Source of the DNA: a virus
Direction: 5' to 3' (one strand)
Virus record (IMG/VR): IMGVR_UViG_3300024265_000098
Coordinates: 1-44,830 of that record
Length of the DNA: 44,830 nucleotides
The notes beneath the pieces are model-generated. The model had not been told where the DNA came from. It was given only the letters and a program-made list of their open reading frames with translations, and made no database searches. The translations under genes and the position numbers were made by a program. Below are positions 4,504 through 36,466 of this stretch, one piece after another; position 1 is the first letter of the stretch, and every line of letters starts with the position of its first letter.

Positions 4504-5378
4504 ACAGCAGACCGAAAATCCTGTTTTACAGTGAAACGGGAGCGTCGCTGCCGATTGCATGGCGAATGCGCCGTATGGGATTCGAGGTTGCCGTTTTTAT
4601 TGCGGAAAAACAATACAGGAAGTGCTATCAAGGTATTCTGCCTGAAGTGCCTGAAGTTGCCGTGTTCGGATTGGTCGATTCGGCCGATCTTGTTGTTTGG
4701 GATGAAGACCTGCACAGCATTAACCAGCGAGTCGTCAAGGCTATGGACCACAAGAATCAACTGGACCTCAATGCAATACTCGGCGGCTTCAGTACCATCC
4801 AAAACCAGCACCTGATGGACGGAGATCTGGGGCCGGACGTGGCGTGCCAGGGATCGCTCATGAGTCACAATCCCGCAAGGCCGTGCGGCCGGCCGAACGC
4901 CGACGCGATATACGGTATGCTGAGTCTGATCGACGGTGATTGGACGGAGCTATTCACTGATGGGGATGTAAAGTTTAAAGAAGGATGTGTGGCCAGTCAG
5001 CGGGTAACGATCGGTCCGTATCCTTACTTGAATATCGAAGGTCAGCAGGTCGAAATCGAAAGCGACCTATCGAAACTGCCGTGGTTCTGGGCGCAAGACG
5101 TCGCCAGGGTAAACGGCAAGTGGGTATCGGCAGGGGCGGACGGGTTGCTCGGCGTGGCAGCGGGAGTGGGAAACACCCCGAACGAGGCCTGGGGTAGGTG
5201 CTATCAGCATATAAAGTCATTGAAGATTAACGCGAGTATTCAATACAGAAGGGACGGCTTGCGAAGTGCGAGGAGAGAAGTAGAAAAACGAAGTGCGAAA
5301 ATTGCGATTGGTGCGAAGGGTGAGAAGGGTGAAACCGGTGCGAAGGGTTTGAAGGGTGTGAAGGTAAAAACTGTGTGA
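4500..5378 (+). CDS. PurD-like (GARS-type) protein with repeat-derived tail
   Basis: Predicted 292 residues; GGAGG upstream and the ATGA overlap with the preceding gene set the start at 4500. The N-terminus (KILFYSETGASLPIAWRMRR) resembles the Rossmann-like N domain of phosphoribosylamine-glycine ligase, and GVAAGVGNTPNEAWGRCY resembles its C-terminal domain. At under 300 residues it is much shorter than the ~430 usual for PurD, so much of the central ATP-grasp region seems missing and activity as a ligase is doubtful. The last ~28 residues are G-A-K-G-E-K-G-type triplets encoded by the 9-bp repeats at 5293-5391. Its position among morphogenesis genes suggests a non-metabolic role. The family link is from motifs only. 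Confidence 0.6.
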   Translation: MNSRPKILFYSETGASLPIAWRMRRMGFEVAVFIAEKQYRKCYQGILPEVPEVAVFGLVDSADLVVWDEDLHSINQRVVKAMDHKNQLDLNAILGGFSTIQNQHLMDGDLGPDVACQGSLMSHNPARPCGRPNADAIYGMLSLIDGDWTELFTDGDVKFKEGCVASQRVTIGPYPYLNIEGQQVEIESDLSKLPWFWAQDVARVNGKWVSAGADGLLGVAAGVGNTPNEAWGRCYQHIKSLKINASIQYRRDGLRSARREVEKRSAKIAIGAKGEKGETGAKGLKGVKVKTV

Positions 5379-5391
5379 AAGGTTTGAACGG
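5293..5391 (+). repeat. 9-bp tandem repeat, 11 in-register units
   Basis: Eleven consecutive 9-base units can be read in phase, with consensus near GTGYGAAGG (for example GTGCGAAGG, GTGAGAAGG, GTTTGAAGG, GTGTGAAGG). The array covers the 3' end of the PurD-like gene and runs to within three bases of the next start codon. It is the longest member of a family found at about 18 loci. Confidence 0.9.
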
Positions 5392-5393
5392 TA

Positions 5394-5903
5394 ATGGGAA
5401 CAGAAAAAGAGCAACTGAGATTTATACGAGTAATCGATCCGAACGTGTTCGATCTGATACCGCGGAAGCTCTTCGAGCAGGTTGAGAGTCTCGAGCCCGC
5501 GCACGTGGATAATTTGATCAAGTACGGTAAGCACATGCTGAACCGGTTCGAGTCGAAGGGCGGGGAAATGGTGCTTGTGCCGAACATTCTGGTCCACGTA
5601 GCCGTAATGGTGGACTCCAATACCAAGATCCACGGGATCTTATGGGCGGAGTTCGATATCGTCGAAGAACTAATCTACGTGCAACTGGCGTCGGTGGAAA
5701 AGGCATATCAAGGCGGGTCCAGGAAGCTCATAACAGATTATCTTTTTGGTCTTGACGTTGACCCGCGGTGCAAGGGCAAGATAAGAATGAACACTGCAAA
5801 GCCGAGAGCTTACGAGCGAGCGGGCTGGAAGCGATCGAAGATGATCATAATGGAGATTGACAATGTGGGCGAAACAGATCCAGATTCGGACGCAGAGGCT
5901 TAG
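5394..5903 (+). CDS. GNAT acetyltransferase-like phage protein
   Basis: Predicted 169 residues from ATG 5394, immediately after a 9-bp repeat array whose GAA(A/C)GG units may act as the ribosome site. The segment IHGILWAEFDIVEELIYVQL followed by a helix (EKAYQGGSRKLITDYLF) and RAYERAGWKRSK resembles the beta4-beta5-alpha core and C-terminal hook of GNAT folds. Similar proteins often sit just upstream of ejection-protein genes in podoviruses. The acidic tail (ETDPDSDAEA) overlaps the next gene by 41 bases. The acetyl-CoA loop is not a clear match, so this could be a structural descendant of the fold. Confidence 0.5.
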   Translation: MGTEKEQLRFIRVIDPNVFDLIPRKLFEQVESLEPAHVDNLIKYGKHMLNRFESKGGEMVLVPNILVHVAVMVDSNTKIHGILWAEFDIVEELIYVQLASVEKAYQGGSRKLITDYLFGLDVDPRCKGKIRMNTAKPRAYERAGWKRSKMIIMEIDNVGETDPDSDAEA

Positions 5904-6837
5904 CCGGCCGACGCATTCCTGGCGGTTCCTCGGCGGCGGCGGGTCGAAGACAAAGACGGTAGATCCATTCGCGGAAATACGGCCGTTGCAGCAGCAGTTA
6001 AACCAACTGCTCGGCGAGCAGCTCGGCCAGGGAGTGGAGCGGTTCGGCGGTGAGAGAGTGCCGGGAGCATCCGGGCTGCAAACAGCCGGCTTCGACGTTG
6101 CTCGGGGTCTGACCCCGATAGCATCGGGCGGTCAGCAATTCGGAGCTCAGCAAACGGCAGGTCTGGATCCGGGGACAGCCGGCCGCGTAACGGGCCAGGC
6201 GGAACAAGCGCTCAGTGGGATACTCGGACCACAGGACCTGGAAGCAGTGAACCGACTCTTCCAGACGGGCTTCGTTGATCCCGCGCAGGGGAATATCAAC
6301 CGATTACTGAGAGGTGTATCGGAGCGATTCGCAGGGGCGGGCTCGGCGGGAGCGACAGGAGGCGGGGCGTTCGGTCGAAGCCTGGGCCGGGCGGCCGGGG
6401 AGGCGGGTACGCAGTTGAACGCTCAACTTGCCAAGCTGCTCTTCGAGACGGACCAGGCGAATAAGAACAGGCAGTTGCAGGGCGTGGGCGCCGCAACGAA
6501 TCTGGCGCAACTTCCCGGGCAGGTCGCCGGCCAGGGTGAAATACTCGGACTGGGGCCACTGGCCAGTTTACTCGATATCGGCGGGATCCAGCGGGGAATA
6601 CAAGGCGAGCAGGGCGAAGCGGGTTTCCAGGAGTTCCTACGCACGCGAGATTTCAATAATCCGTTCCTGAACCTGCTACCGACGGCGTTTAACGTACCGG
6701 GCAAGACAATCGTTCAGGAGCAGCAAGGACCGGGACTCGGTGGTTTTCTTGGAACGGTGGGAGGTGCGTTCCTGGGTCCAGCGGGCGGCGCGTTGGGAGG
6801 TGCCCTCGGTAAGAGTCTATTCGATGGCGGTGAATAG
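5863..6837 (+). CDS. Internal virion / ejection-type protein, Gly/Ala/Gln-rich
   Basis: Predicted 324 residues. ATG 5863 is preferred over the upstream TTG because GGAG lies eight bases before it. The protein is rich in Gly, Ala and Gln. It has a basic N-terminus, a long low-complexity helical middle (EQLGQGVERFGGER, AGSAGATGGGAFGRSLGRAAGEAG) and a C-terminal glycine-zipper stretch (GGFLGTVGGAFLGPAGGALGGALG) that could insert in a membrane. This composition and its place before two further large proteins match the ejection-protein cluster of short-tailed phages, such as the T7 gp14 or P22 gp7 positions. No direct homology is claimed. Confidence 0.6.
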   Translation: MWAKQIQIRTQRLSRPTHSWRFLGGGGSKTKTVDPFAEIRPLQQQLNQLLGEQLGQGVERFGGERVPGASGLQTAGFDVARGLTPIASGGQQFGAQQTAGLDPGTAGRVTGQAEQALSGILGPQDLEAVNRLFQTGFVDPAQGNINRLLRGVSERFAGAGSAGATGGGAFGRSLGRAAGEAGTQLNAQLAKLLFETDQANKNRQLQGVGAATNLAQLPGQVAGQGEILGLGPLASLLDIGGIQRGIQGEQGEAGFQEFLRTRDFNNPFLNLLPTAFNVPGKTIVQEQQGPGLGGFLGTVGGAFLGPAGGALGGALGKSLFDGGE

Positions 6838-7794: not shown

Positions 7795-10700
7795 TGGGGC
7801 TGTTCTCAGGCATAGTAGAGGTAAAGAACGCCCCGATCACGGAACCCACCCTTCGGCCGGGGCGGGCGCCGGGGATTGCTATTACACCCGGGCAGACGGC
7901 GGCGCCGAGCGACTCGCTACTGGCGCGAACGGCAACGGGAATTCCAACTCAACCGCAACCGGCCCCGCCGGGCATGTTCGCCGAGATTCTGGAGAAACGG
8001 ACAGGGACCGAAAGCGGCCGCGGATTCTGGCGTGCACTTGCCGAAGATCCGGAAACGAAGATTCCTTTCCTCGGCGGCGTTATTCAAGGCGGGCGATTCG
8101 CGGGAGTGATACAATCGTCTCGGAGATTGAGCAGGAACGATCCGGAAGAATATTTCAGAAGCGCCGCAATCAACGCTCAGGCGGCTGCGCTAACAGCAGG
8201 GCCGGGGCAACCGCAGAATATCCAAGAGCAGGCAGACGCTTTGAGAACAAAAGACCTGCAACAGGTGGAAAACTACCTAGAGCAGGTCAATCGCCAATAC
8301 ACAACCGCCGGGCAGGTTGGTCGGATCGTCGGCGATATGCCGGCGTTCATGATTGAATTTCTCGCAACGGGCGGGTTGAAGAAGCTCGGCGAGGGTACTG
8401 CCAAGCAAATCGGTAAGAGACTTCTGAAAGACCGGGCTACGTCATTGGCGGGAAGAGCGGCTATCGGAACGACGGCTTTCCTCAGCGGGGCGGCTTTGAG
8501 ATCGGCAGGTTTGCCTCAAAGGGGTGTTGAGTCGGTCCTGAAACGGCAGTTGCCCAAAGGCATAACATACGGTCCGGAAGGCGAGATCAGTATCCAGGGA
8601 CCGGGAGAGGAACCGTGGACGTCTGTGGTTAAGGGTCTCGGCGATCATTATATCGAGATTCTCAGCGAGCAATCGGGAGAGGGATTGCAGGCGGCAGCAC
8701 CATTTCTGGGTAAGGCGCTGCAGAAAACACCGTTTCTGGGCAAGTTACTACCGAAGATTCAGAAGAAGTGGCTTGCACTGCCGGCGAATAAAGTCAAAAC
8801 CGCAGCGGACTTCAGTACGGAAATAGGCACAGCGACCGGCTTTAACGGCGTTTTGGGTGAGATCGGTGAAGAATTCCTGGGCGATGGACTCAGGGCGGTA
8901 TTCGATATAGACGACTTCGGCGCCGGCAAAGACGCCGGGCCGCTGGAAAGACTCAACGCCGCAATCGAAAGGGATATTGAGAACCTCCCAGTAATGGCGG
9001 CGGCTTTTGCAGTGCCGGGAGTTGTCAGGTTCGGGGCGGCCAGGGCTCTTGGTGCGGCCGAACCTCAGCGGGACTTCAGGCGAGAGGCAGACGCGGCGGC
9101 GGCCGTTGGCGGCGCCGAAGCCGTGCAGGCGTTTAACCGAGCCGGCGGAGCGGCTGGTATGTCGCTGGAACAACTCGAAGCACAGGTGAAATTTCTCAGA
9201 GACACGCTCGGAGAGGCCCCCGCAGGTCAAAAAAAAAGTGAGATCATCGCCCAGATAACGGAACTGGAAGATATCCTCGGCCAGAGAAAGTCAATAGATC
9301 TCGTAGAAAAATCACAAGCGGCCATCGAAGCGGGCGCCGGTACGAAGTTCGTCAGTAGGCGATCAGATCTCTTGCGAGCGGCGGTAAAGTCGTTCAAGGA
9401 GGGTAAACAGACCGCAGAGGTGGTCCAGGACCGGTTGGATAGACTGAACGAAGGACTGGAAGAGGCGGGGATCCAGCGGCCCGACCAGATCACAGCGGAA
9501 GAAGTCAGACCGGCCTTGCAAGAGCAGTTCAGAGCCGACGTTGCCGCCGGCGAGGCCGAAGCGGATAGAGCCGACGTTGCCGCGGACGCCGAAGAGGCAC
9601 AACTTAACCAGCAACTGGACGATATGACGGAGGCGTTGCGAGATGAACGGACTGAGGAACGCATTGCGACCGAGGCGGTGAGGGAAACCGCTGAACAACA
9701 AGTGTTTGAAGGTGAGAAGGGTGCGAAGGTTGAAGAAGAAGCCTTGGAGGCCCGCGATGAGTTTGAGCTTTACACGCAGAATATCCCCGAGGCGTCTGAG
9801 AAAGAGATCGTGCAGGCCATGCTCGAGGATGGCGCCGAGCCACCCGTCGCCCTGGTTGAGAAGTACACCGACCTGCCCGGGGCCGAGGCTTTCCTGGAGC
9901 AGAAACGCATCGATCAGTTTGTCCCGGAACCGCCGGTAGAACAACCAGTCACCGAACCCGACATTCCCGGTCAGCAGGTGATACCGGAGGGGGAAGAAAA
10001 GCCGCCAGAGGAAATGACAGAGGAAGAGTTCGTCAGAGAGAGGCCCACAATCCTGATGCGACGAATAATCGCACAGCAACAGGCTGAGTTGACGAAATTG
10101 CAGGCGAGACTTGATAAGGTACAGGGTCGCAAAAAGGGCAATGCTGAAAAACGGCGTGGTATACAATCGCAAATTGACAGGTCAAAAGAACGTATTAAGC
10201 TTGCGAGAGCGGCGAACAGCCCAGAAACCTACGCGAAGGCATGGGACCGCAACTTCTCAGCTTCAACAATAACAGTGGAAGGCAAGCCGAGTCCGAATTT
10301 GTTCAAGTTCCAGCCGGAATTTCTTGCATCAGAACACAGAGAACTCCTAAGCCAACCCCGCGGCGTTGCAGAATCTGCTAAATCCACTGTTCAAAAGATG
10401 ATCGAGGCGGAGGTCGCCGAGGAATTGGGACTGACCGAGGGTACGCCGGCGGCTACTACCCAGGAGCGGACTGAGGAAGAGTTGACGGGGCTTTCGAAGT
10501 CGCGGCGGGCTCGGATTAAGGGTCAGACTGCAACGAATATCCTTCAAAGTGAAATCTACCAAACCGCGTTGGAAGGCCAGGACGTTACCGAGCGTGAAAT
10601 CGACGTTGGTTTCTACTTTGTGGAAAAGTCGGGTCAAGGTGAAATCGACCAGGTGATTCAATCCGTTCCCAAGGGCAGGATCAGGACGGCTTTGAAGAAG

Positions 10701-13700: not shown

Positions 13701-13949
13701 TATCTTTTCCTATCGAGGTGGCGGCTGCAGTCGCTCGACCGCAGGAGGATCGGCGCTGTTGTCGGAGAGGAATTCGGGCCGCCGTTCAAAGCGATCGAGG
13801 GGGTATGGAGCGACGTTAAGAAAGGCGAGATCAACCGTAGCGTCCGCAGTATTCCAATCATCGGCGAGGAATATTACTGGTGGTTCGGCGGGGGGAGTAG
13901 AAAAGGCGAGAGGAATGAATTCCTGGATATTTACGATCCGTTTAATTAA
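7794..13949 (+). CDS. Giant internal virion protein with HEXXH metallopeptidase motif
   Basis: Predicted 2051 residues, the longest gene, read without interruption. Residues ~1-400 hold Gly/Ala-rich helical segments with possible membrane-active stretches (PFLGKALQKTPFLGKLLPK). Residues ~430-850 are charged coiled coil. HEGYH at about residues 1199-1203 fits the HEXXH zinc-peptidase signature, with an acidic stretch (ANEEAEAAAFGEY) ~20 residues later that could give the third ligand. The C-terminal ~700 residues are helical and resemble the tails of large internal core proteins. Such proteins are thought to be ejected into the host with the DNA and to modify the envelope or host proteins. A 9-bp repeat patch is embedded in frame near residue 640. 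Confidence 0.75.
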   Translation: MGLFSGIVEVKNAPITEPTLRPGRAPGIAITPGQTAAPSDSLLARTATGIPTQPQPAPPGMFAEILEKRTGTESGRGFWRALAEDPETKIPFLGGVIQGGRFAGVIQSSRRLSRNDPEEYFRSAAINAQAAALTAGPGQPQNIQEQADALRTKDLQQVENYLEQVNRQYTTAGQVGRIVGDMPAFMIEFLATGGLKKLGEGTAKQIGKRLLKDRATSLAGRAAIGTTAFLSGAALRSAGLPQRGVESVLKRQLPKGITYGPEGEISIQGPGEEPWTSVVKGLGDHYIEILSEQSGEGLQAAAPFLGKALQKTPFLGKLLPKIQKKWLALPANKVKTAADFSTEIGTATGFNGVLGEIGEEFLGDGLRAVFDIDDFGAGKDAGPLERLNAAIERDIENLPVMAAAFAVPGVVRFGAARALGAAEPQRDFRREADAAAAVGGAEAVQAFNRAGGAAGMSLEQLEAQVKFLRDTLGEAPAGQKKSEIIAQITELEDILGQRKSIDLVEKSQAAIEAGAGTKFVSRRSDLLRAAVKSFKEGKQTAEVVQDRLDRLNEGLEEAGIQRPDQITAEEVRPALQEQFRADVAAGEAEADRADVAADAEEAQLNQQLDDMTEALRDERTEERIATEAVRETAEQQVFEGEKGAKVEEEALEARDEFELYTQNIPEASEKEIVQAMLEDGAEPPVALVEKYTDLPGAEAFLEQKRIDQFVPEPPVEQPVTEPDIPGQQVIPEGEEKPPEEMTEEEFVRERPTILMRRIIAQQQAELTKLQARLDKVQGRKKGNAEKRRGIQSQIDRSKERIKLARAANSPETYAKAWDRNFSASTITVEGKPSPNLFKFQPEFLASEHRELLSQPRGVAESAKSTVQKMIEAEVAEELGLTEGTPAATTQERTEEELTGLSKSRRARIKGQTATNILQSEIYQTALEGQDVTEREIDVGFYFVEKSGQGEIDQVIQSVPKGRIRTALKKMFTFDRSDLVKNGGQAISWDVAVQAGFERTQGTEGHLDLTEFAERVKQALEGKKPEPGSRRLNSRAMDTAAEQGEPFVEMMVNKFRMLHNGSTKEEINDMILDVGDRFNIKRSGLIDDMIDGDQIVRLQSLTDAESDEEIDRLAEQQVEAEDVSDAEGAAKAVLEANGIDVHIEQVEIIDEATLADHLPEKPDDDVPFEVRGKPTGAALTTSDRQIILLANGADSQTGYHEGYHVIRPRLTARDHDILARNFANEEAEAAAFGEYAQDKATQKGQIKFIFEKLMRFLRQIKSALTGAGFRTHEQIFFEIAEGTATVADAKAAKVQFERKPGDIQREAEKRARVKAKAARLKAARKPKVSKARLRIKLKDTTPFLRPDLRPLPEEELVRPAVPETKGAAKRFSEEAKLEFRTREKTSLREALSRKAQEYLLGFDRRVEAMSARLEKIHPLLMSKVRRYVFDVDTRTTQLLEQTAPFIKGIKKIKGDDARDLKYALNNNWRAETERLVEKYNLQEEYQALRDVLDAIHEAGNEVGLEILYRGDHFPRRVKDLKGLLRFLDTSDKHSAFSDAIRKRQEQAGGRPLSDNEVTQVVNTLLRGFRVGGVSLSRPGVVKDRSIEEFDRSIENFYFELDESLEMYIQDMIQSITTREFFGKQTSEIAKLRAQESRLRTRLHKTQARTGITKPVTLEKHKSTLARAAEKLREIHEELEKHKNQKLEDSIGYFALQLDLDFEDQAQVFDMLKAIMEPRGLNGATRDYVKLAYVDVLANIPVALTQLEELGLSVYRDNLNAIPAAHKALLKNNGLNLEDIGISDINQYMRDLGLQGIMDKAMFAMRAVDTFGKQTLLNTELARSVRLAKNSPNNAKFVSEMRRVFGDDARDVINDLTAERMTDNVKFLMFSKILDLQPSAITETPEYYAAGGNWRILYMLRQFTLKRMSVLRDKATKTMTGTPSERLEAMADLAKMLAILTAFGVGKDFIKDWYLGKDFDLADSVLDNMLQYLFLSRWRLQSLDRRRIGAVVGEEFGPPFKAIEGVWSDVKKGEINRSVRSIPIIGEEYYWWFGGGSRKGERNEFLDIYDPFN
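9702..9735 (+). repeat. 9-bp repeat patch inside the giant virion gene
   Basis: About 3-4 units of the GTGYGAAGG family lie in the middle of the 2051-codon gene and encode FEGEKGAKV. They sit in the charged coiled-coil section, where an insertion would be tolerated. Confidence 0.6.
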
Positions 13950-13980
13950 CTGCGAACAGTGCGAAAGGTGAGAAGGGTAC
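13948..13980 (+). repeat. 9-bp repeat with AACTGC head
   Basis: Begins AACTGCGAA at the stop codon of the giant virion gene and continues with GTGCGAAAG and GTGAGAAGG units, ending five bases before the next ATG. The purine-rich units probably provide the ribosome-binding site of the 13985 gene. Confidence 0.8.
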
Positions 13981-14806: not shown

Positions 14807-14834
14807 TTGACAACTCTCTATTGTGTTCTATCAT
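14807..14834 (+). promoter_or_regulatory. Sigma70-type promoter for the radical SAM gene
   Basis: TTGACA at 14807-14812 and TATCAT at 14829-14834 are separated by 16 bases. The start point would fall near 14841, on top of ATG 14842, implying a leaderless transcript. TTGTC and GACAA (about 14793-14813) form an inverted pair overlapping the -35 box, a possible operator. Confidence 0.55.
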
Positions 14835-14841
14835 TCGGGAC

Positions 14842-15693: not shown

Positions 15694-15975
15694 GTGAGCA
15701 ATAATCAATCGTCAATAGACAATAGACAATGCCTCTGCGGCCAGCCCGCCCACGTTGCAATTGTTATCGAGGAATTCCCGATCGTCTCTAACGACGTTCC
15801 GTTCGGCCGGCACGTATGCCGGCGCTGTCACTTCAAGCACAAGCAATTCAAAGCGGAGCAGCCTATCGAGTGGCTGGACTACTTCGAACCTCGACTGCCA
15901 CTATTCCCATTCGAGTACGGACTGCCTCAAAACGCGATACTCCGCAGGGGACGCGGTATTCCGTTTGAAAAATAA
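15694..15975 (+). CDS. Small zinc-ribbon-like protein
   Basis: Predicted 93 residues from GTG 15694; the start is uncertain because no strong ribosome site is visible. CLCG near residue 13 and CRRCHFKH near residue 43 make a C-x-C...C-x2-C-x3-H set suited to binding zinc. The rest is acidic and aromatic without a known domain. The first codons lie in a heptamer repeat (15700-15731), so its N-terminus (SIDNRQC) is repeat-derived. The minus-strand 16798-17040 product has a comparable cysteine layout and a similar SIDN start. Confidence 0.5.
   Translation: MSNNQSSIDNRQCLCGQPAHVAIVIEEFPIVSNDVPFGRHVCRRCHFKHKQFKAEQPIEWLDYFEPRLPLFPFEYGLPQNAILRRGRGIPFEK
15700..15731 (+). repeat. Heptamer repeat (AATAGAC type)
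   Basis: Four to five 7-base units related to TCAATAG/ACAATAG in tandem. The same family occurs at about 17024-17050, 25243-25268, 30100-30125 and 32811-32842. Confidence 0.75.
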
Positions 15976-16100: not shown

Positions 16101-16190
16101 GCTCATTGATACCAAGTACAAACGATCCAAAAGTGCCGTCGAAGAACCCCGGGTATCCATGAGCAAGGTCACCGCTTCGGCGGCTTTTTT
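16100..16190 (+). ncRNA. Small structured RNA with its own promoter and terminator
   Basis: About 90 bases run from the predicted start to a T-run. TGCTCAT at 16100-16106 pairs with ATGAGCA at 16159-16165, then after one mismatch GATACC pairs with GGTATC, giving a closing stem of about 13 bp around a mostly unpaired 37-base loop (16114-16150). A CCGC-TTCG-GCGG hairpin and T6 (16172-16190) end the transcript. There is no credible open frame. The role is unknown: a regulatory antisense RNA, a protein-sequestering RNA, or the lead-in of a longer message if readthrough occurs. Confidence 0.65.
16172..16190 (+). terminator. Intrinsic terminator of the small RNA
   Basis: CCGC / GCGG closes a TTCG tetraloop and is followed by C and six T residues. 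The stem is short, but the UUCG loop is exceptionally stable. Confidence 0.7.
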
Positions 16191-16230
16191 AACTGCAAGT
16201 GTTTGAAAGTTCGAAAGGTGTGAAGGAAAG
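16191..16230 (+). repeat. 9-bp repeat with AACTGC head
   Basis: AACTGC is followed by GTTTGAAAG and GTGTGAAGG-like units directly after the small-RNA terminator. The repeat leads into the ribosome site of the 16241 gene. Confidence 0.7.
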
Positions 16231-16240: not shown

Positions 16241-16456
16241 ATGTTTTCAGTGCAGCAGAAACGCGATATTTCAGCCTCAGTTCAAGAGACTTTACGGGCA
16301 ACGGGTCACCCAGAGCTACCAGAGACAGAGATAGAGTTCGTGCTTGACGTCAAGGGAAAGGAAAGTTGGTCTTGGGCAAAAATCCAGAACAACGGCAGCG
16401 TAGAGAATCCCTCGGTGAATCCACATAACGAAGCTCAAGACCCAGCAGAAGCTTGA
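16241..16456 (+). CDS. Small hypothetical protein
   Basis: Predicted 71 residues. ATG 16241 has GGAAAGG eleven bases upstream; the longer frame from 16199 would translate the repeat and is rejected. The N-terminal half (QQKRDISASVQETLRATGHPELPETEIEFVLDV) looks like a small helix-strand domain. WSWAKIQNNGS is a conserved-looking core, and the C-terminus is Asn/Pro-rich. No family was recognised. It is the first gene after the strong promoter, so it may be expressed early by readthrough. Confidence 0.5.
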   Translation: MFSVQQKRDISASVQETLRATGHPELPETEIEFVLDVKGKESWSWAKIQNNGSVENPSVNPHNEAQDPAEA

Positions 16457-16475
16457 AAGGGTGAGAAGGTAACGG
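16452..16475 (+). repeat. 9-bp repeat, about 2 units
   Basis: GCTTGAAAGG and GTGAGAAGG units overlap the stop codon of the 16241 gene. Confidence 0.55.
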
Positions 16476-16762: not shown

Positions 16763-16793
16763 GACAGAACACAGAATACAGAAGACAGAACAC
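16763..16793 (+). repeat. Heptamer repeat (CAGAACA type)
   Basis: About four 7-base units of CAGAACA/CAGAATA/CAGAAGA. The related array is at 40768-40811. Confidence 0.75.
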
Positions 16794-16797
16794 GAAC

Positions 16798-17040
16798 TTA
16801 CGCCGAGAGGCTGGCTTTTGAGATTACCCCGCCATAGGCGGGTTCGCAATATTCTACTTTGTCGGCAGGGTCACGAAAAGGAGTCCTGAAATGAGCATGG
16901 CCGCAACTCCGGCAGAAGGCACGGCCCGTAAACCCGTTTACGTAATCGCGGGGCCAGATCAGGCATTCAGTAGCGGGTACAAATATGATCCGAGCCGGGA
17001 GAGAAGCCCGGCGACAAAAATAGCAATTGTCAATCGACAA
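16798..17040 (-). CDS. Minus-strand zinc-ribbon-like small protein (candidate)
   Basis: Predicted 80 residues on the opposite strand to almost everything else, beginning at a TTG within a heptamer repeat. CYFC at residues 6-9 and CRSCGHAHFR about 35 residues later form two knuckles spaced as in zinc ribbons. A similar layout is seen in the 15694 product, which favours a real gene over a chance frame. There is no ATG and no visible ribosome site, which argues against it. It lies between two heptamer repeats (16763-16793 and 17024-17050), as if it were a separate cassette. Confidence 0.35.
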   Translation of the reverse strand: MSIDNCYFCRRASLPARIIFVPATECLIWPRDYVNGFTGRAFCRSCGHAHFRTPFRDPADKVEYCEPAYGGVISKASLSA

Positions 17041-17050
17041 TTGACAATAT
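17024..17050 (+). repeat. Heptamer repeat (AATTGAC/AATCGAC type)
   Basis: Tandem CAATTGT/CAATCGA/CAATTGA units; a divergent member of the AATAGAC family. It covers the putative start of the minus-strand zinc-ribbon frame. Confidence 0.65.
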
Positions 17051-17054
17051 AACA

Positions 17055-17219
17055 GTGACAGTCACGGCAAGGGAAATTACAGCGGCCTTGCGGCTTGAAA
17101 AAGAAAGGAGATTCCTGCTCCAAACTATCAAAAAAAAAGCACAGAAGTTACTAACCACCTCAAAGAAAGATCGGGCCGGTGGCCGTGGCCGGCCCGTAAA
17201 AACAAAAACAAAGGTGTGA
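17055..17219 (+). CDS. Small basic protein with AT-hook-like tail (candidate)
   Basis: Predicted 54 residues from GTG 17055. It is strongly basic, with a helical middle (RLEKERRFLLQTIKKKAQKLL) and a C-terminal GGRGRPVK that matches the RGRP core of AT-hook minor-groove binders. The DNA for RGRP lies in an 8-bp GC-rich inverted repeat (CGGGCCGG/CCGGCCCG, 17172-17196), so the motif could be a by-product of a hairpin. No ribosome site is evident, so this is tentative. Confidence 0.3.
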   Translation: MTVTAREITAALRLEKERRFLLQTIKKKAQKLLTTSKKDRAGGRGRPVKTKTKV

Positions 17220-17238
17220 AGGTGTGAACGGTAAAAGG
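17211..17238 (+). repeat. 9-bp repeat, about 3 units
   Basis: AAGGTGTGAAGGTGTGAACGG units stand between the AT-hook-like frame and the DUF2303 gene. Confidence 0.65.
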
Positions 17239-19675: not shown

Positions 19676-19870
19676 GTGTCATGTGCGGTTTTCCATTATC
19701 GGCCGACCTGTCATTATGACGACTTCCACGAAAAGTTTGCATATCATCCACCCCGGGAGCCCGACGAAAATGAGTTGGTTAGTTTCCACTATGTTAATTT
19801 GGTTTTCGACGCAATCGGGCAGGGCGGTTGTTCCGCCCGTATCCCGGGGGTTTTAACGATGAAGGTTTGA
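19676..19870 (+). CDS. Doubtful small ORF
   Basis: Sixty-four codons from a GTG with no good ribosome site. The product is rich in His, Tyr and Phe (FHYRPTCHYDDFHEKFAYH) and ends in the 9-bp repeat. A GGGCGG/CCGCCC hairpin lies near its 3' end. It may be a gene or only a spacer between 19652 and 19883. Confidence 0.25.
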   Translation: MSCAVFHYRPTCHYDDFHEKFAYHPPREPDENELVSFHYVNLVFDAIGQGGCSARIPGVLTMKV

Positions 19871-19884
19871 AAGGTGTGAAAGAT
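19862..19884 (+). repeat. 9-bp repeat, about 2 units
   Basis: GGTTTGAAAGGTGTGAAAG ends at the ATG of the 19883 gene and probably serves as its ribosome site. Confidence 0.6.
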
Positions 19885-20945: not shown

Positions 20946-21205
20946 AAGCATCGTACAGGTACATAAGGTTTGTGGAGGACTCAGACCCAGAGGCAAAACG
21001 GTGGTTCTGTGAGAATAAGAGGCACGGCGATCAGCTTGGGGAAGTGACTTACTATGAAGAATGGCGTCAATGGGTGATAGCGTTTCAACCGGGCTGTGTA
21101 TTCAACAACACTTGTCTGAACGATATTAGCGACTTCCTGAAGCAGTTGTCGGGTGCGACGGCAGGTGCGAAGGGTGAGAAAGGCTTGAAAGGTGACGATC
21201 GATGA
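20942..21205 (+). CDS. Small hypothetical protein with repeat-derived tail
   Basis: Predicted 87 residues from ATG 20942 (ATGA overlap, GGGGGAG upstream). The folded part (YRYIRFVEDSDPEAKRWFCEN...YYEEWRQWVIAFQPGCVF) is followed by GAKGEKGLKG, which is coded by 9-bp repeat units at 21163-21198. As with the PurD-like gene, the repeat has lengthened the reading frame. Confidence 0.55.
   Translation: MKASYRYIRFVEDSDPEAKRWFCENKRHGDQLGEVTYYEEWRQWVIAFQPGCVFNNTCLNDISDFLKQLSGATAGAKGEKGLKGDDR
21163..21198 (+). repeat. 9-bp repeat, about 4 units, in coding sequence
   Basis: GTGCGAAGG, GTGAGAAAG, GCTTGAAAG and a GTGACG remnant form the 3' end of the 20942 gene and sit just before ATG 21202. Confidence 0.75.
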
Positions 21206-21554: not shown

Positions 21555-21580
21555 TTAAAAAGTGCGAAAGGGACAGAAGA
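21555..21580 (+). repeat. 9-bp repeat, 1-2 units
   Basis: AGTTAAAAAGTGCGAAAGGGACAG precedes the lipoprotein start and supplies GAAAGG as the ribosome site. Confidence 0.5.
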
Positions 21581-21930: not shown

Positions 21931-22220
21931 ACGTGACAAAAACAAAGAAACCCGAAAGAACCAACCTGACATGGCCGGAACGCGTTAATATGCTATCAGT
22001 GAACCCCGACGCAGCAACCAGGGAAGATGTAGCGAATATGGCCGCGGACATACAGGATTTCATCAGGCTCTTAGTCGATATTGAGGAACTAAGGGTTGGA
22101 TGTGCAATGTCGATATCAGAAGGTGACAAAGAAAAGAAATGCGATCTACTCCACGGATGGTGCGAGTTGGTGCGAATGAAGTTTAGAGAAAGGGAAGTGA
22201 CGTATGAAGGATCGAAGTAG
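21921..22220 (+). CDS. Hypothetical early protein
   Basis: Predicted 99 residues; either ATG 21921 or the in-frame ATG 21927 could start it, both overlapping the lipoprotein stop. The protein is helical and charged (ATREDVANMAADIQDFIRLLVDIEELR), with three cysteines in the C-terminal half. No family was recognised. Confidence 0.5.
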   Translation: MEMNVTKTKKPERTNLTWPERVNMLSVNPDAATREDVANMAADIQDFIRLLVDIEELRVGCAMSISEGDKEKKCDLLHGWCELVRMKFREREVTYEGSK

Positions 22221-22503
22221 ACCGAAGGCGTGCGCTGGAATGAAGGCGCGGAACTGGTTGGTTGGGCTCGCTCTGGCGGTGATATGCTGGTTTGTACTTG
22301 CGTTGATAATCGGCATAGTCTTAGCCGGCTGTGCGCCGGCGCATGACGAATACCTCGCGGTGAGGTTCCAGGCGTTCAACGACTCCGTTCAGGACGGGCT
22401 TGCAGACTGCCGAACGGACCCCAATGCGTGCCGGCCGACGCTCGAGTTGATGGCGGGCGAGTTGGAAGTGTGGACGGAGATATTGACCGATCCGAATCTT
22501 TAA
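22204..22503 (+). CDS. Phage lipoprotein with long signal peptide
   Basis: Predicted 99 residues from ATG 22204, or 87 from ATG 22240. A basic N-terminus (MKARNWLVG) is followed by a long hydrophobic helix and the lipobox LAGC (ALIIGIVLAGC), so lipidation is expected. The mature part is short, acidic and has two further Cys (ADCRTDPNACR). Short lipoproteins of this kind include outer-membrane spanins, but here no nested arrangement is seen. Confidence 0.55.
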   Translation: MKDRSRPKACAGMKARNWLVGLALAVICWFVLALIIGIVLAGCAPAHDEYLAVRFQAFNDSVQDGLADCRTDPNACRPTLELMAGELEVWTEILTDPNL

Positions 22504-22548
22504 CTGCGAAGGTGCGAAAAGTTTGAAGGGTTTGAAGGGTATCAAAGG
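22502..22548 (+). repeat. 9-bp repeat with AACTGC head
   Basis: AACTGCGAA followed by GTGCGAAAA, GTTTGAAGG and GTTTGAAGG units, beginning at the stop codon of the lipoprotein gene. Confidence 0.85.
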
Positions 22549-24860: not shown

Positions 24861-25066
24861 TGACATGGATAATCCCGAACAACTCAGAACTGCGAACGTG
24901 TGAAAGGTTTGAATATTTGAAAGGAGTAAACGGTTTGAAAAATGCGAAGATAAGCAGAATGAAGGCTGTATATTATTGGCTGTGCGGCAAGTTGTTGTGG
25001 TGGCTGGGGGGTCTGGGGGAAAGAAAGTGTGAAGAGTCTGAAAAAACTGAATGGTTTGAAGAGTGA
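24860..25066 (+). CDS. Small Trp-rich protein, start uncertain
   Basis: Open from ATG 24860 (68 codons), but the first 33 codons are mostly 9-bp repeat. The inner ATG 24959 gives a 34-residue product with a W/L-rich hydrophobic helix (VYYWLCGKLLWWLGGLG) and an acidic tail, itself made by a second repeat array. Either start is possible. This is probably a membrane-associated peptide. Confidence 0.4.
   Translation: MTWIIPNNSELRTCERFEYLKGVNGLKNAKISRMKAVYYWLCGKLLWWLGGLGERKCEESEKTEWFEE
24888..24945 (+). repeat. 9-bp repeat with AACTGC head
   Basis: AACTGCGAA followed by GTGTGAAAG, GTTTGAATA, TTTGAAAGG and GTTTGAAAA-like units. Confidence 0.75.
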
Positions 25067-25081
25067 GAAAGGTGCGAACGC
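25020..25081 (+). repeat. 9-bp repeat, six in-register units
   Basis: GTGTGAAGA, GTCTGAAAA, AACTGAATG, GTTTGAAGA, GTGAGAAAG and GTGCGAACG read in phase, ending two bases before ATG 25083. Confidence 0.8.
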
Positions 25082-25242: not shown

Positions 25243-25268
25243 AAATAGTCAGTAGGAAATAGACAATG
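25243..25268 (+). repeat. Heptamer repeat (AATAGTC type)
   Basis: AAATAGTCAGTAGGAAATAGACAATG runs into the integrase start codon; an imperfect member of the AATAGAC family. Confidence 0.6.
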
Positions 25269-26979: not shown

Positions 26980-26986
26980 ACTACCA

Positions 26987-27032
26987 ATGTGCGAAGAGTG
27001 TGAAGGTGTTAAGAGTGTGAAGGGAAAACGGT
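26987..27032 (+). repeat. 9-bp repeat, about five units
   Basis: TGTGCGAAG, AGTGTGAAG, GTGTTAAGA and GTGTGAAGG units between the TerS-like gene and the next start. Confidence 0.8.
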
Positions 27033-27251: not shown

Positions 27252-28699
27252 GCATATCTGATCAAATTCAGGAGATAGCGGCTTTAGGGCGTAAGGATTA
27301 CGGATGGTTCATGCGTAACGCGCTCGACGTGAAGCCTGAGCACTACTGGGAGGGCATGGAGCGAGTGTGCGCATCCGTGCGGGATAATCCTCAGACAGCT
27401 GTTTCCGCCGGACATGGGGTCTCGAAGACTTATGTGGCCGCCAGGATCGCTTTGACGTTTCTGTATTGCTACGTACCGTCGATCGTGGTCACAACGGCGC
27501 CGAGCGAAGATCAGGTGAAAGGGTTACTCTGGCGGGAGATGCGCGAGGCCCACGCAAACGCCCGTATACCCATGGGCGGTAAGGTCTCAACGCTACAGAT
27601 CGATATGCAGCCGGAAAGCGGACTCAGGTGGTTCGCAATTGGAGTCGCCACCAAGCCCGACACGGTAACAGGTGAGGCAACCAGGCTGCAGGGCTATCAT
27701 TCACCGCATTTCCTATTCATTCTGGACGAAGCGGCTGCTATCCTACCGGAGATATGGAAAGCGGTTAAGCACGTGGGAGGGCCGTTCAAGCGGGTATTGG
27801 CGATCGGCAACGCCACCTCATCAACGGGGGAATTCGTAGCGGCGCTCAAAAGTCCGAATTGGAACCGGCTACAGATATCCGTCAAGGACACGCCGAACTT
27901 CATTAACAGTAATAACGACATTCCGGGCCTGTACGGAACGGAATACGAACGTGATATCCGAACGACTTACGGCGAGGACTCCGACGAATACGCCGTTAGA
28001 GTGCTCGGGGCGATATCTGCAAAGGCGGCCCTCGGCAGTTATTACGGCAGGAAACTGGACGACCTCGAGAGCAAGGGTCGTATCTGTGACTTGGATGCCG
28101 ACCCGCACAAACAAGTTCACATCGTTCGAGATCCCGGTTACACGTCGGCTTTCTGGTTCTTCCAGTTGCTCGACTACGACGTTCATTTCATCAGGTACCA
28201 CGAGGACTCGGGTCTGGGAGTTGAGGATTATGCGAGATATTTCGACGAGTTAAGGCGTGAATGTGGCTATATTTACGGCGATAACATAGTCCCGTGCGAT
28301 ATGGACAACAACGCGGGCCGCGTAATTACAGGGCAGACGGCACTCGAAACGCTGCAGGACCTAGCCATCACTTGCGGCCGCCCCGTGGCGTTACAAGTCG
28401 AGAGGACTGAGATCGAGGGTATCGAGCGGACAGTTAAATTCTTGACCAGGGCCAGGTTCGATAAGACATTGTGTGCGGTTGGGTTAGACCGATTAAGGGG
28501 CTTCCACGAGCGGATCAATAAGCAGATGAGCACGGAGGACCACATCGCCTACACCGGATCCCCGGACAAGGACGGGATCAACGACCACGGCGCCGCCGCT
28601 ATGAGGTATGCCAGTAAGGCCATCGTCGAAGGTAAGGTGGGCGGCGGCAGTATGACGGCCCAGGACGTTGAGGACCTATGGAATGAGGCTAAGAGGTAA
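27248..28699 (+). CDS. terL: Large terminase subunit
   Basis: Predicted 483 residues from GTG 27248. The N-terminal ATPase has a Walker A-like loop (SAGHGVSKT, residues 53-61) and Walker B (FLFILDE, 155-161), followed by a coupling segment (AIGNATSSTGEF). The C-terminal RNase H-like nuclease has acidic residues in RDPGYTS (Asp295), PCDMDNN (Asp351/353) and GINDHGAAAMRY (Asp446), the usual three-carboxylate set. Together they cut concatemeric DNA and pump it through the portal. The domain set is complete and the length is normal. Headful or cos packaging cannot be told from this alone, but the circular map agrees with headful permutation. Confidence 0.93.
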   Translation: MSISDQIQEIAALGRKDYGWFMRNALDVKPEHYWEGMERVCASVRDNPQTAVSAGHGVSKTYVAARIALTFLYCYVPSIVVTTAPSEDQVKGLLWREMREAHANARIPMGGKVSTLQIDMQPESGLRWFAIGVATKPDTVTGEATRLQGYHSPHFLFILDEAAAILPEIWKAVKHVGGPFKRVLAIGNATSSTGEFVAALKSPNWNRLQISVKDTPNFINSNNDIPGLYGTEYERDIRTTYGEDSDEYAVRVLGAISAKAALGSYYGRKLDDLESKGRICDLDADPHKQVHIVRDPGYTSAFWFFQLLDYDVHFIRYHEDSGLGVEDYARYFDELRRECGYIYGDNIVPCDMDNNAGRVITGQTALETLQDLAITCGRPVALQVERTEIEGIERTVKFLTRARFDKTLCAVGLDRLRGFHERINKQMSTEDHIAYTGSPDKDGINDHGAAAMRYASKAIVEGKVGGGSMTAQDVEDLWNEAKR

Positions 28700-28737
28700 C
28701 TGCTAAGGTTTGAATAGTGCGAAAGGTGAGAAGGATG
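28698..28737 (+). repeat. 9-bp repeat with AACTGC head
   Basis: Begins AACTGCTAAG at the terminase stop codon, then GTTTGAATA, GTGCGAAAG and GTGAGAAGG, ending at ATG 28735. Confidence 0.85.
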
Positions 28738-29169
28738 ATTGAGGTTAAGGTCTTCATAAATGGGATGCCATATAAGCTCTTCACGCACGATTTTAGGCGA
28801 GATGGGCTATTTATACGGGTATCAATGATGGAAAGGATGCGAGTAGAGGACGATGTGAAAAGCCGTTGCAAAATGAAAGAGTTCGCAGCGCGTATTGAAT
28901 ATGACGAGAAAGTAGGCTGGAAGGCCAGCATATCGAGCCCTGACATAGAATGGATAGATGGGGGCTTTTATTTGAAAAGTCTAGGTTTGAAAGGAGGCGA
29001 GTATGCCGAATATAGTGATGACTGCTATATGTGTGGGTTGTCTGATTCTGGTAATTGTTGGAATGGTGGGGGCTTACTACGCAGGCATGGGACGTGGGGC
29101 CCGTCTTGCGTGGGAAGAAATAGAGGAGCAGCGACAGGACTACCAGAACAGGGCGGAACTGAGAGATGA
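28735..29169 (+). CDS. Hypothetical protein running through a repeat into the next gene
   Basis: Predicted 144 residues. The N-terminal ~80 look like a compact protein (VKVFINGMPYKLFTHDFRRDGLFIRVSM...RIEYDEKVGWKASISSPDIEWIDGGFYLKS). At about 28973 a 9-bp repeat gives LGLKGGE and the frame then continues 166 bases into the 29003 gene, reading low-complexity Gly/Cys/Arg sequence that does not look native. The ancestral protein probably ended near the repeat, which has removed or shifted the stop. Confidence 0.45.
   Translation: MIEVKVFINGMPYKLFTHDFRRDGLFIRVSMMERMRVEDDVKSRCKMKEFAARIEYDEKVGWKASISSPDIEWIDGGFYLKSLGLKGGEYAEYSDDCYMCGLSDSGNCWNGGGLLRRHGTWGPSCVGRNRGAATGLPEQGGTER
28973..28998 (+). repeat. 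9-bp repeat, about 3 units, at a gene junction
   Basis: TTTGAAAAG, TCTAGGTTTGAAAGG and GGCGAGT units. The GAAAGGAGG at the end is the ribosome site for ATG 29003. Confidence 0.6.
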
Positions 29170-30099: not shown

Positions 30100-30125
30100 G
30101 AATAGAAAATAGACAATAGTCAATG
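30100..30125 (+). repeat. Heptamer repeat (AATAGAC/AATAGTC)
   Basis: GAATAGAAAATAGACAATAG then TCAATG: three to four tandem 7-base units in the gap before the portal gene. Confidence 0.75.
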
Positions 30126-32658: not shown

Positions 32659-32814
32659 ATGCCTAAGATAGACGACGACTTCGAAGCCGAGTTTGACGCC
32701 GATACTCTCGTCAACGCCAAGTTGATCCGGGCAGACAAGAAACGCTTCGAACGTGCCCAGAAGCACCTAGAGAAAAAGAACAAAGCAGTGACAGCGGCGT
32801 TGAAAGACAAATAG
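32659..32814 (+). CDS. Small helical protein in head operon
   Basis: Predicted 51 residues from ATG 32659, with GAGGAATGGA upstream. An acidic head (DDDFEAEFDAD) and basic helix (KKRFERAQKHLEKKNKAV) give it a strongly polarised charge pattern. Function unknown; it is placed where scaffold-associated proteins often occur. Confidence 0.5.
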   Translation: MPKIDDDFEAEFDADTLVNAKLIRADKKRFERAQKHLEKKNKAVTAALKDK

Positions 32815-32842
32815 TCAATAGTCAATAAAAAATAGCCAATTG
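32811..32842 (+). repeat. Heptamer repeat (AATAGTC)
   Basis: AATAGTC, AATAGTC, AATAAAA and AATAGCC units in tandem directly after the stop of the 32659 gene. Confidence 0.75.
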
Positions 32843-33740: not shown

Positions 33741-34709
33741 ATGGGAATCACAGGCACAAGTATAATCACCCCGGCGGTGAACGCATACTTTTTCAGGCTG
33801 TTACTGATTCGTAACAAGCCGAGATTGATTCACGAAATGTTCGCACAGCGGTTCTCGCTACCGTCCGGTAACGGAAAGTCGGTTGTGTGGCGCCGGTACG
33901 CACAGCTTGCGACGGCTACCGAAGAAGTGGCCGAGGGAGTAACACCGCCCGGTAAGCAACTGTCCAAAACCGATATCCGGGCCACGGTCAGTCAGTACGG
34001 GGATTGGGTCAGTATCACCGACGTTCTGGAGTTCACGGCGGAGAACAACGTTTTGAACTCCGCAGCTTCCGAACTCAACGACCAGATGATGAGAACGGTG
34101 GACGAACTGGCCAGGAACGTTCTGGTCTCGAGCGCCTCGGCGATAACAGCCGATCAGGGCACGCCGGAAGTAACAGCGCTCAACGACGTCGATATCAACC
34201 AGGTCACGAACACATTGCAGAACTCCGACGCACTTCCCGTCGCTCCGATGGTGGGAGCGAGTACGGGGCAAGGAACGGCTCCTATCCAGGAAGCGTACTG
34301 GGTTATGATGAACACCGAGCTCAATACCGACTTGAAGATGGTCTCCGGATACCTGTCGACTGCTGAGTACCCCGGGCAGAGAAGCGTGGTTATGAGCGAG
34401 CGGGGTAGTGTTGAAGAGGCCCGATTCCTGGCCTCCAGTATCGCCCATAAGCAGGGCTCGGCCACGGCGGCCTTCCCGGCGACGGCGGGAACGTATTACT
34501 ACCTGCCGTTCATCGCCCGCAACGCCTACGGTGTGGTGGATCTTGAAAAGGCAAACGCCAAGATGATCATCCACGCACGGGGAACCGCAGGCGCGGCCGA
34601 TCCGTTGAACCAGCGTCAGTCGATGGCCTGGAAACTGATGAACGTGGCTCGTATCCTCAACGATCTGAACGTGATTATTTTGAAGGTTACGAAGAGAAGC
34701 GATACGTAA
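33741..34709 (+). CDS. Major capsid protein (N4-gp56-like)
   Basis: Predicted 322 residues; AAGGGAAG seven bases before ATG 33741. SVVWRRYAQLATATEEVAEGVTPPGKQLSKTDIRATVSQYGDWVSITD matches the N-terminal arm and spine helix region of N4-gp56-type HK97-fold capsid proteins, and FIARNAYGVVDLEKANAKMIIHARG matches their conserved C-terminal strands. It forms the icosahedral shell around the scaffold. No protease gene is evident nearby, so the scaffold may exit intact. Confidence 0.88.
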   Translation: MGITGTSIITPAVNAYFFRLLLIRNKPRLIHEMFAQRFSLPSGNGKSVVWRRYAQLATATEEVAEGVTPPGKQLSKTDIRATVSQYGDWVSITDVLEFTAENNVLNSAASELNDQMMRTVDELARNVLVSSASAITADQGTPEVTALNDVDINQVTNTLQNSDALPVAPMVGASTGQGTAPIQEAYWVMMNTELNTDLKMVSGYLSTAEYPGQRSVVMSERGSVEEARFLASSIAHKQGSATAAFPATAGTYYYLPFIARNAYGVVDLEKANAKMIIHARGTAGAADPLNQRQSMAWKLMNVARILNDLNVIILKVTKRSDT

Positions 34710-34733
34710 AGGTTTGAAGAGTGAGAAGGGTTT
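34709..34733 (+). repeat. 9-bp repeat, about 3 units
   Basis: AAAGGTTTGAAGAGTGAGAAGGG units begin at the capsid stop codon. Confidence 0.6.
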
Positions 34734-35506: not shown

Positions 35507-35962
35507 ATGATGGTAAAGAGGAAGATAGATGGCGAACTTGCAAATCCTGCGAGCAGCGGAAACCTAGATATTTCCGAGCAGGACAAGCAAAACGAAGGGT
35601 CAGTCGCGACACTTGAGGAGCCGAAAGGGAAAACCAAGAAGGAATGGCAGGTCCCTCTCGACCCGAAGATACGGGTTCGGATTGTTAATCTGGACCTGGT
35701 CGGTAGTGAAGACGAGAACGTTCCATGGTCGTTCGCTTTCAGACGCCCTTCGGTGCAGTGCCCGGACGGCACAACGGTTCGGTTTCAGACGATTTCGTAT
35801 CCGTTGAGAGACGGAGGCGAGTACGAACTGGCCGAATCAGTCGTTGTCCACCTCGAGTCGATAGCCTATCCGGTAAAGAGGTACAAAGAGGGTCAGGACG
35901 AAGGCCAGAGTATGGTAGTACAGGAGAAGAAGCGCAGACGCTTTACTGTCAGCCGGCTTTAA
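35507..35962 (+). CDS. Hypothetical virion-region protein
   Basis: Predicted 151 residues from ATG 35507 or ATG 35510. A disordered charged head (ANPASSGNLDISEQDKQNEG) is followed by a small beta domain (IRVRIVNLDLVGSEDENVPWSFAFRRPSVQCPDGTTVRFQTISYPLRDG), and it ends very basic (EKKRRRF). It may be a head-completion or stabilising protein; no family was recognised. Confidence 0.55.
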   Translation: MMVKRKIDGELANPASSGNLDISEQDKQNEGSVATLEEPKGKTKKEWQVPLDPKIRVRIVNLDLVGSEDENVPWSFAFRRPSVQCPDGTTVRFQTISYPLRDGGEYELAESVVVHLESIAYPVKRYKEGQDEGQSMVVQEKKRRRFTVSRL

Positions 35963-36021
35963 CTGCTAAGGTTTGAAGGGTTTGAAGGGTGCGAAGGGTG
36001 CGAAGGGGACAGTGTGAAGGG
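35961..36021 (+). repeat. 9-bp repeat with AACTGC head, about six units
   Basis: AACTGCTAAG at the stop codon is followed by GTTTGAAGG, GTTTGAAGG, GTGCGAAGG, GTGCGAAGG and GTGTGAAGG. One of the cleanest copies of the family. Confidence 0.9.
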
Positions 36022-36063
36022 ATTGGCTCTTCACTCGTATATAAGAAGAAAGGAGAAAGTACG

Positions 36064-36420
36064 ATGTTAACGAATATTACACGTCAAATGTGCGGGCATC
36101 CGAAGAGTCTCGCAAACATCCTCCAGGAATTGGTGGGCCGTGTGTCAGACCTCGAAGCGGAGGTCAGGCCAGTAAAGGGCGCGGGCAAGATTCGCGATAA
36201 ACGCCACGCCGAACGCGAGGCGAAGGCCGAGGGCAAACGCAAACTCGCTGAAGAAAAAGCAGCGAAAAAGGCTGAAGAAGAGCGAGCGCAAGCCAAAGCC
36301 GAGGCCGAAGAAGATGCACTGGCCGCCGCCGAGCAGGGTCGCTTGGATAAGATCAAACGCTCACAGGACAGGGCCGCCGCAAAGAACCCGCCGAAAGACG
36401 ACGGGGAGGAAACGGTTTGA
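36064..36420 (+). CDS. Coiled-coil protein
   Basis: Predicted 118 residues; AAAGGAG upstream of ATG 36064. After a short head (MLTNITRQMCGHPKSLANILQELVGRVSDLEAEV), residues 45-100 are a long Lys/Glu/Ala helix (REAKAEGKRKLAEEKAAKKAEEERAQ), almost surely a coiled coil. The stop lies in the next repeat array (GTTTGA). It may be a structural spacer or adaptor. Confidence 0.6.
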   Translation: MLTNITRQMCGHPKSLANILQELVGRVSDLEAEVRPVKGAGKIRDKRHAEREAKAEGKRKLAEEKAAKKAEEERAQAKAEAEEDALAAAEQGRLDKIKRSQDRAAAKNPPKDDGEETV

Positions 36421-36466
36421 AGAGTGCGAAGGGTGTGAAAGGGGAAAAGGGTATGAAAGTGTGAAT
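36414..36466 (+). repeat. 9-bp repeat, about five units
   Basis: GTTTGAAGA, GTGCGAAGG, GTGTGAAAG, then more degenerate units ending GTGTGAATA; it overlaps the stop of the coiled-coil gene. Confidence 0.8.

What the first reader, a model, noticed from the sequence alone, without database searches (positions are those of the whole stretch)
5293..36466. Family of 9-bp tandem repeats spread through about 18 gene junctions
Degenerate GTGYGAAGG arrays occur at 5293, 9702, 13948, 16191, 16452, 17211, 19862, 21163, 21555, 22502, 24888, 25020, 26987, 28698, 28973, 34709, 35961 and 36414. They are all on one strand, 2-11 units long, and mostly between stop and start codons. I know of no phage element like this. 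They could provide ribosome sites, bind a protein, or be spread by recombination or slippage.
Basis: partly seen in the sequence, partly recalled or inferred. Interest (0 to 1): 0.82.

Follow-up and report, generated by a model that had tools for sequence, protein, structure and literature searches.

The report
Bacterial-type spacer repeats filling phage gene junctions
The gaps between genes of this uncultivated temperate phage are largely built from short, imperfect tandem repeats of the kind that litter the spacers between genes in some bacteria, all in the same reading direction, and they look more like spacer repeats that colonised the junctions than like designed ribosome sites.

Summary
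A strict scan finds 16 arrays of a 9-bp unit (GTKHGAARG) on the + strand and none on the - strand. Two of the 18 listed sites are single units. 24 unit pairs sit 8-10 bp apart; shuffled sequence gives 0.01. The arrays fill junctions, often starting on the upstream stop codon. Three lie in frame inside ORFs and encode Gly-X-Lys.

Other junctions carry 7-bp arrays (ACAGRAN, AATAGWC, ATACGAR), also + only. 43 locus fetches from related phages (551 kb, partly overlapping) have no 9-bp arrays. Where junctions can be compared, the array is an insertion at the gene end. The same unit types occur, sparsely and mostly between genes, in bacterial genomes. The window's four-type mixture was seen almost only in Planctomycetota, some of which also carry the 7-bp families.

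Best explanation: host-type intergenic short tandem repeats invaded and expanded in the junctions of a temperate phage, held there by selection against damage to genes and for sense orientation. A ribosome-site role is disfavoured: the arrays pair with the anti-SD more weakly than their own shuffles. The host assignment and any function are inferred. Closest known kinds are TAACTGA and GGGNATC repeats of bacteria and start-associated sequences of cluster K phages.

The parts
5293..5391 (+). Longest 9-bp array; 3' end of ORF 4446-5378 in frame (GAKGEKGETGAKGLKGVK), then across its stop to the next start at 5394
9702..9729 (+). 3 units in frame inside the 2051-aa ORF (reads EGEKGAK)
13947..13977 (+). 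Header TAACTGC (TAA = stop of 7794-13949) plus array, up to start 13985
15713..15730 (+). 7-bp AATAGAC array just before an ATG
16190..16227 (+). Header TAACTGC plus 3-unit array before start 16241
16448..16470 (+). 2-unit array; its first unit supplies the TGA stop of 16241-16456
16764..16797 (+). 7-bp ACAGRAN array (x5)
17023..17049 (+). Degenerate CAATWG 7-bp array
17211..17231 (+). 2-unit array, 37 nt before start 17268, with a separate AAGGAG
19862..19883 (+). 2-unit array; supplies TGA of 19676-19870; abuts ATG 19883
21162..21195 (+). 3 units, in-frame C-terminus (GAKGEKGLKG) of ORF 20942-21205
21562..21570 (+). Single unit before start 21580
22501..22541 (+). Header TAACTGC (TAA = stop of 22204-22503) plus 4 units
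24888..24950 (+). Header AACTGC plus degenerate array
25024..25081 (+). Degenerate array before start 25083
25244..25265 (+). 7-bp AATAGTC/AATAGAC pair directly before the integrase start 25266
26986..27024 (+). Array (3 strict units; 3.9 copies in TRF), 9 nt before start 27033
28697..28734 (+). Header TAACTGC (TAA = stop of the terminase ORF) plus array up to ATG 28735; absent at the orthologous junction of G005
28985..28993 (+). Single unit merging into an SD-like AAAGGAGG
30101..30124 (+). 7-bp AATAGAC/AATAGTC array upstream of the portal gene
32810..32827 (+). 7-bp AATAGTC array (2.6 copies) overlapping a stop
34709..34731 (+). 2 units directly after the stop of the major capsid gene; absent in G003, G004, G005
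35960..36021 (+). Header TAACTGC (TAA = stop of 35507-35962) plus 4-5 units
36412..36459 (+). 4-unit array; first unit supplies TGA of 36064-36420
38147..38165 (+). 7-bp ATACGAR array shortly before a likely ATG at 38172
40766..40809 (+). 7-bp ACAGRAN array (x6) after the stop of 40064-40762

Best explanation
These are short tandem repeats of the same types that sit between genes in some bacteria, most like Phycisphaerae-type Planctomycetota. They entered this temperate, integrase-bearing phage and were multiplied within its genome by copying of array blocks (shared TAACTGC header, 35-bp higher-order repeat) and by unit gain and loss. They persist almost only where they break no gene: between a stop codon and the next gene. 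Because the unit contains TGA in one or two frames, an array that reaches a gene end usually becomes that gene's stop; in the open frame (GGT NNG AAR) it instead adds a Gly-X-Lys tail. Sense orientation is retained because the sense array is purine-rich, unstructured and mildly SD-like, so it does not obstruct the next start. Shown: the arrays, placement, orientation, absence in relatives, insertion at gene ends, and matching unit types in bacterial genomes. Inferred: the host, the direction of transfer, the spread mechanism and the reason for sense bias.
For: Non-random, + only, junction-placed. The same unit types occur in many bacterial genomes; mixtures of at least 3 of the 4 main types were nearly all planctomycete. 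G018 carries 9-bp, AATAGTC and ATACGAR arrays; G014 carries 9-bp and ACAGRAN arrays within 60 bp of each other. In cells most scored arrays are intergenic and found in all gene contexts. No 9-bp arrays in 43 locus fetches from relatives. The G005 ortholog of 4446-5378 ends EKRIKGLKIA*, the window EKRSAKIA then the array tail; the terminase junction is 1 nt in G005 and 35 nt of array here. Shared header, 35-bp higher-order repeat, 43-bp match between junctions. Integrase. Array RNA unstructured, z -0.1 to +1.9. Distant relative L263 shows the same pattern with another heptamer.
Against: No host is identified: the capsid protein found nothing in 397 genomes of the class, and exact 2-unit arrays are rare there too (17 of 298). 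Array density in the phage (312 per Mb) far exceeds that of candidate host genomes (about 5-31 per Mb). Complete sense bias (16/16) could mean a function that pure invasion does not explain. The header was not seen next to cell arrays.
Confidence: 0.5

Rival explanations
1. The arrays are sense-strand RNA (or DNA) sites for a repeat-binding protein that coordinates many phage genes, as proposed for TAACTGA repeats of Beggiatoaceae.
For: 16/16 sense orientation and position before starts; in cells, tandem-gene junctions also favour sense arrays, 16:4 in Planctomycetota and 38:20 overall, counts that include a few overlapping loci; array RNA is unstructured. Precedent: PMC4679880.
Against: Unit number, spacing and sequence are very loose. 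No candidate binding protein was found in the proteins scanned, but most small ORFs were not scanned. Relatives manage the same junctions without arrays.
Confidence: 0.17
2. The arrays are ribosome-binding or standby sites for the downstream gene: each unit carries AAGG and the last unit lies at SD distance.
For: In about half of the junctions the last unit supplies the only SD-like AAGG near the start, e.g. 13985, 21580, 27033. Each unit pairs with the anti-SD at about -4.6 kcal/mol.
Against: 14 of 15 arrays pair with the anti-SD more weakly than at least 84% of their own shuffles. Many array junctions carry a separate AAGGAG (17268, 22559, 36064). The 7-bp arrays in equivalent positions have no SD character. 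Three arrays lie within or end ORFs in frame.
Confidence: 0.15
3. The arrays are recombination seams: short homologies at gene borders that let the phage swap gene cassettes.
For: Several small genes are flanked by arrays on both sides (16241-16456, 21202-21537, 28735-29169, 36064-36420); block copies between junctions.
Against: The core terminase gene is also array-flanked and syntenic with relatives. No second phage sharing cassettes bounded by these arrays was found.
Confidence: 0.1
4. The arrays derive from collagen-like Gly-X-Y coding sequence that was copied out of genes into junctions.
For: Three arrays read Gly-X-Lys in frame, and the unit variability falls on the middle codon.
Against: The same unit variability is seen in cellular arrays, most of which are intergenic. 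The clearest in-frame array is an extension of a gene whose relative lacks it.
Confidence: 0.05

Closest known systems
TAACTGA direct repeats of marine Beggiatoaceae (MacGregor 2015, PMC4679880)
   Same: Short tandem repeats, low copy per set, scattered through intergenic regions, mostly in forward orientation close to start codons, patchy across phyla
   Different: There a 7-bp unit with low degeneracy, in cellular genomes, largely replacing SD sites; here a degenerate 9-bp unit with extra 7-bp families, in a phage, with SD sites often kept. The TAACTGC header here resembles that heptamer but is not repeated
GGGNATC heptamer repeats of Xanthomonas and Nostoc (PMC4692102)
   Different: Those form G-quadruplexes in vitro; the window unit has only single GG or GGG runs, and quadruplex formation was not tested
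Start-associated sequences of cluster K mycobacteriophages (PMC3203893)
   Same: Short repeats dispersed through a phage genome, nearly all one orientation, at gene starts, with SD-like content
   Different: 13-bp, highly conserved, not tandem, conserved across related phages and essentially absent from the host; here tandem, degenerate, absent in relatives and present in bacterial genomes
Collagen-like Gly-X-Y repeats
   Same: Three in-frame arrays encode Gly-X-Lys
   Different: Most arrays are noncoding, and stops occur in other frames

Membership tests
Dispersed intergenic short tandem repeats of bacteria (general kind) | Tandem units of about 5-11 bp at many unlinked intergenic sites | tested here: met
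   16 arrays, 67% noncoding; 7-bp arrays in further junctions
Dispersed intergenic short tandem repeats of bacteria (general kind) | Same unit types present in cellular genomes | tested here: met
TAACTGA repeats | Tandem TAACTGA heptamers | tested here: not met
   TAACTG occurs 12 times on +, singly
Cluster K start-associated sequences | Conserved, non-tandem 13-bp GGGATAGGAGCCC at start codons | tested here: not met
   The units are a tandem, degenerate GTKHGAARG; definition
Cluster K start-associated sequences | Conserved across related phages | tested here: not met
   No 9-bp arrays in 43 relative loci
Ribosome-binding site array | Enriched anti-SD pairing | tested here: not met
Ribosome-binding site array | Drives translation of the downstream gene | not testable with these tools
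   Needs a reporter assay
Regulatory protein-binding repeats (iterons, stoperators, RNA-binding sites) | A protein that binds the unit | not testable with these tools
   No candidate found in scanned proteins; most small ORFs not scanned
Structured RNA element | Stable conserved fold | tested here: not met
   z between -0.14 and +1.88; no Rfam match
Collagen-like coding repeat | Open Gly-X-Y frame within a protein | tested here: inconclusive
   True for three arrays, not for the majority

The most novel reading that the evidence does not exclude
A phage has co-opted its host's intergenic repeat vocabulary as a junction-wide regulatory code: sense-oriented arrays at many gene borders act as shared RNA sites for a host protein that normally acts on host intergenic repeats, so that the phage operon is controlled by host repeat-reading machinery.
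Probability: 0.12. Interest if true: 0.85.

Novelty: new variant of a known kind. Interest (0 to 1): 0.52.

Why it matters
Scattered short tandem repeats between genes are common in some bacteria but their origin, spread and function are open (PMC4679880 says no exchange mechanism is evident). A phage whose junctions are filled with several such families is a concrete carrier that could move them between cells. It also offers a compact genome in which their effect on translation can be tested, and the unit vocabulary may serve as a host signature for uncultivated phages.

Tried and rejected
RNA folding: arrays are no more structured than shuffles. Rfam: nothing at E up to 1. Capsid protein search for prophages in 397 genomes of the candidate class: nothing, and with no positive control this proves nothing. 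Megablast of the first 25 kb against named phages: no match. Viral-contig scans for other array-bearing phages: hits hold one or a few isolated arrays only, apart from the near-identical contig of the same sample. That contig showed no unit-number change, so it gives no direct view of slippage. Cassette-shuffling: the terminase gene is array-flanked yet conserved in order. RBS as primary function: disfavoured by shuffles, with the caveat that the host 16S tail is assumed canonical.
Full report
WHAT THE WINDOW IS. The window is an uncultivated virus record of 44,830 bases with portal, major capsid and terminase genes and a tyrosine-type phage integrase at 25266-26159. All of the genes I list are on the + strand. 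Positions 38-169 repeat at 44698-44830 with 98.5% identity, and a second contig of the same sample runs across the window's ends, so the genome is close to complete and circularly permuted or terminally redundant. Both contigs come from one sample and are not independent.

The core of the 9-bp unit occurs 62 times on + and 8 times on -, against 18.2 in shuffles; unit pairs at 8-10 bp are 24, 0 and 0.01. A strict definition gives 16 arrays, all +. The unit is GTKHGAARG with GAA fixed; the variable dinucleotide is mainly TT, GC, GT or GA. Two of the 18 listed sites are single units. Three arrays are in frame within ORFs, where they read Gly-X-Lys. The gene list used for placement is hand-made from ORFs, so small genes and start codons are provisional.

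Other junctions carry degenerate 7-bp arrays: ACAGRAN at 16764 and 40766, AATAGWC-type at 15713, 25244, 30101 and 32810, CAATWG at 17023, ATACGAR at 38147. None of the 7-bp patterns occurs on the - strand. By eye, most inter-gene gaps of 30 nt or more contain a 9-bp or a 7-bp array.

HISTORY. Relatives with 54-69% identical portal and capsid proteins are syntenic for the structural genes. Two protein-profile scans fetched 43 relative loci (551 kb, partly overlapping contigs), and none has a 9-bp array; one shows a single chance-level pair. At the terminase 3' end the relative G005 has TAA-A-ATG, while the window has 35 nt of array. The G005 ortholog of ORF 4446-5378 ends ...EKRIKGLKIA*; the window protein reads ...EKRSAKIA and continues IGAKGEKGETGAKGLKGVKVKTV*. 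So at this gene an array was added at the end and extended the protein by 23 residues. The direction (gain here rather than loss in all relatives) follows from parsimony.

COPYING. Five arrays begin with TAACTGC (13947, 16190, 22501, 28697, 35960) and a sixth with AACTGC (24888); in four the TAA is the stop codon of the upstream ORF. The junctions at 22498-22540 and 35957-35999 are 84% identical over 43 bp, and the 5293 array has a 35-bp higher-order period. These point to block copying within the genome as well as unit gain and loss. In other arrays (16448, 19862, 36412) the first unit supplies the TGA stop. Since the unit holds TGA in one or two frames, an array reaching a gene end will often become its stop, which may explain why arrays abut stop codons.

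BACTERIAL COUNTERPARTS. Most scored arrays in cells are intergenic. Loci mixing at least three of the unit types, as the window does, were nearly all Planctomycetota, mainly Phycisphaerae or Sedimentisphaerales by record title, with one Actinoplanes exception; Bacteroidales mix only TT and TC. Planctomycete G018 also holds AATAGTC and ATACGAR arrays, G159 holds 9-bp and ATACGAR arrays, and in G014 a 9-bp and an ACAGRAN array lie within 60 bp of each other. The enrichment is modest and the arrays are rare even there: GTG-type pairs in 10 of 294 non-seed genomes of the class against 8 of 839 elsewhere, p = 0.011. No prophage was found. A Phycisphaerae-type host is therefore a lead, not a result.

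FUNCTION TESTS. The arrays are unstructured as RNA. They are not optimised ribosome sites: 14 of 15 pair with the anti-SD more weakly than at least 84% of their own base shuffles, and several junctions keep a separate AAGGAG. Orientation is the strongest hint of constraint: 16 of 16 in the phage. In cells, arrays in tandem-gene junctions favour sense 16:4 in Planctomycetota and 38:20 overall (simple ORF calls, and a few overlapping loci were counted twice). A purine-rich, unstructured sense spacer is an economical reason; a binding protein is a possible one.

A SECOND PHAGE. The distant relative L263 (39% identical terminase) has AATAATC arrays at three junctions, at 4884, 6870 and 7174. Exact heptamer pairs occur only on the gene-sense strand, and the arrays overlap the upstream stop codons. 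The pattern thus recurs with another unit.

PLACE AMONG KNOWN THINGS. It belongs to the general kind of dispersed intergenic short tandem repeats known from bacteria: TAACTGA (PMC4679880) and GGGNATC (PMC4692102). It resembles in position the start-associated sequences of cluster K mycobacteriophages (PMC3203893), but it is tandem, degenerate, absent in relatives and present in bacteria, so it is not one of those. My limited literature searches found no report of a phage with junctions filled by such repeats; the library is incomplete.

Noticed in passing
window 16525-16760: Part of an 811-bp stretch without listed genes; the + strand folds into a strong multi-branched structure (-88.7 kcal/mol, z = -2.1) with no Rfam match, a possible unknown noncoding RNA.
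   Followed up: partly
window 38-169 and 44698-44830: Near-identical direct repeat at the ends, so the record is close to a complete genome.
   Followed up: yes
window 14821-15654: ORF matching the phage radical SAM family phrog_9298.
   Followed up: no
L263 4884, 6870, 7174: Distant relative with AATAATC heptamer arrays at three gene junctions, in gene-sense orientation and overlapping stop codons.
   Followed up: partly
L164 7461-8192 and L163 7578-9099: Clusters of several 9-bp arrays within 0.7-1.5 kb of ORF-poor DNA in planctomycete genomes, as repeats of larger flanking blocks.
   Followed up: no
window 44540-44600: 24-bp tandem repeat (2.5 copies, 91%) near the end of ORF 43518-44606.
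   Followed up: no
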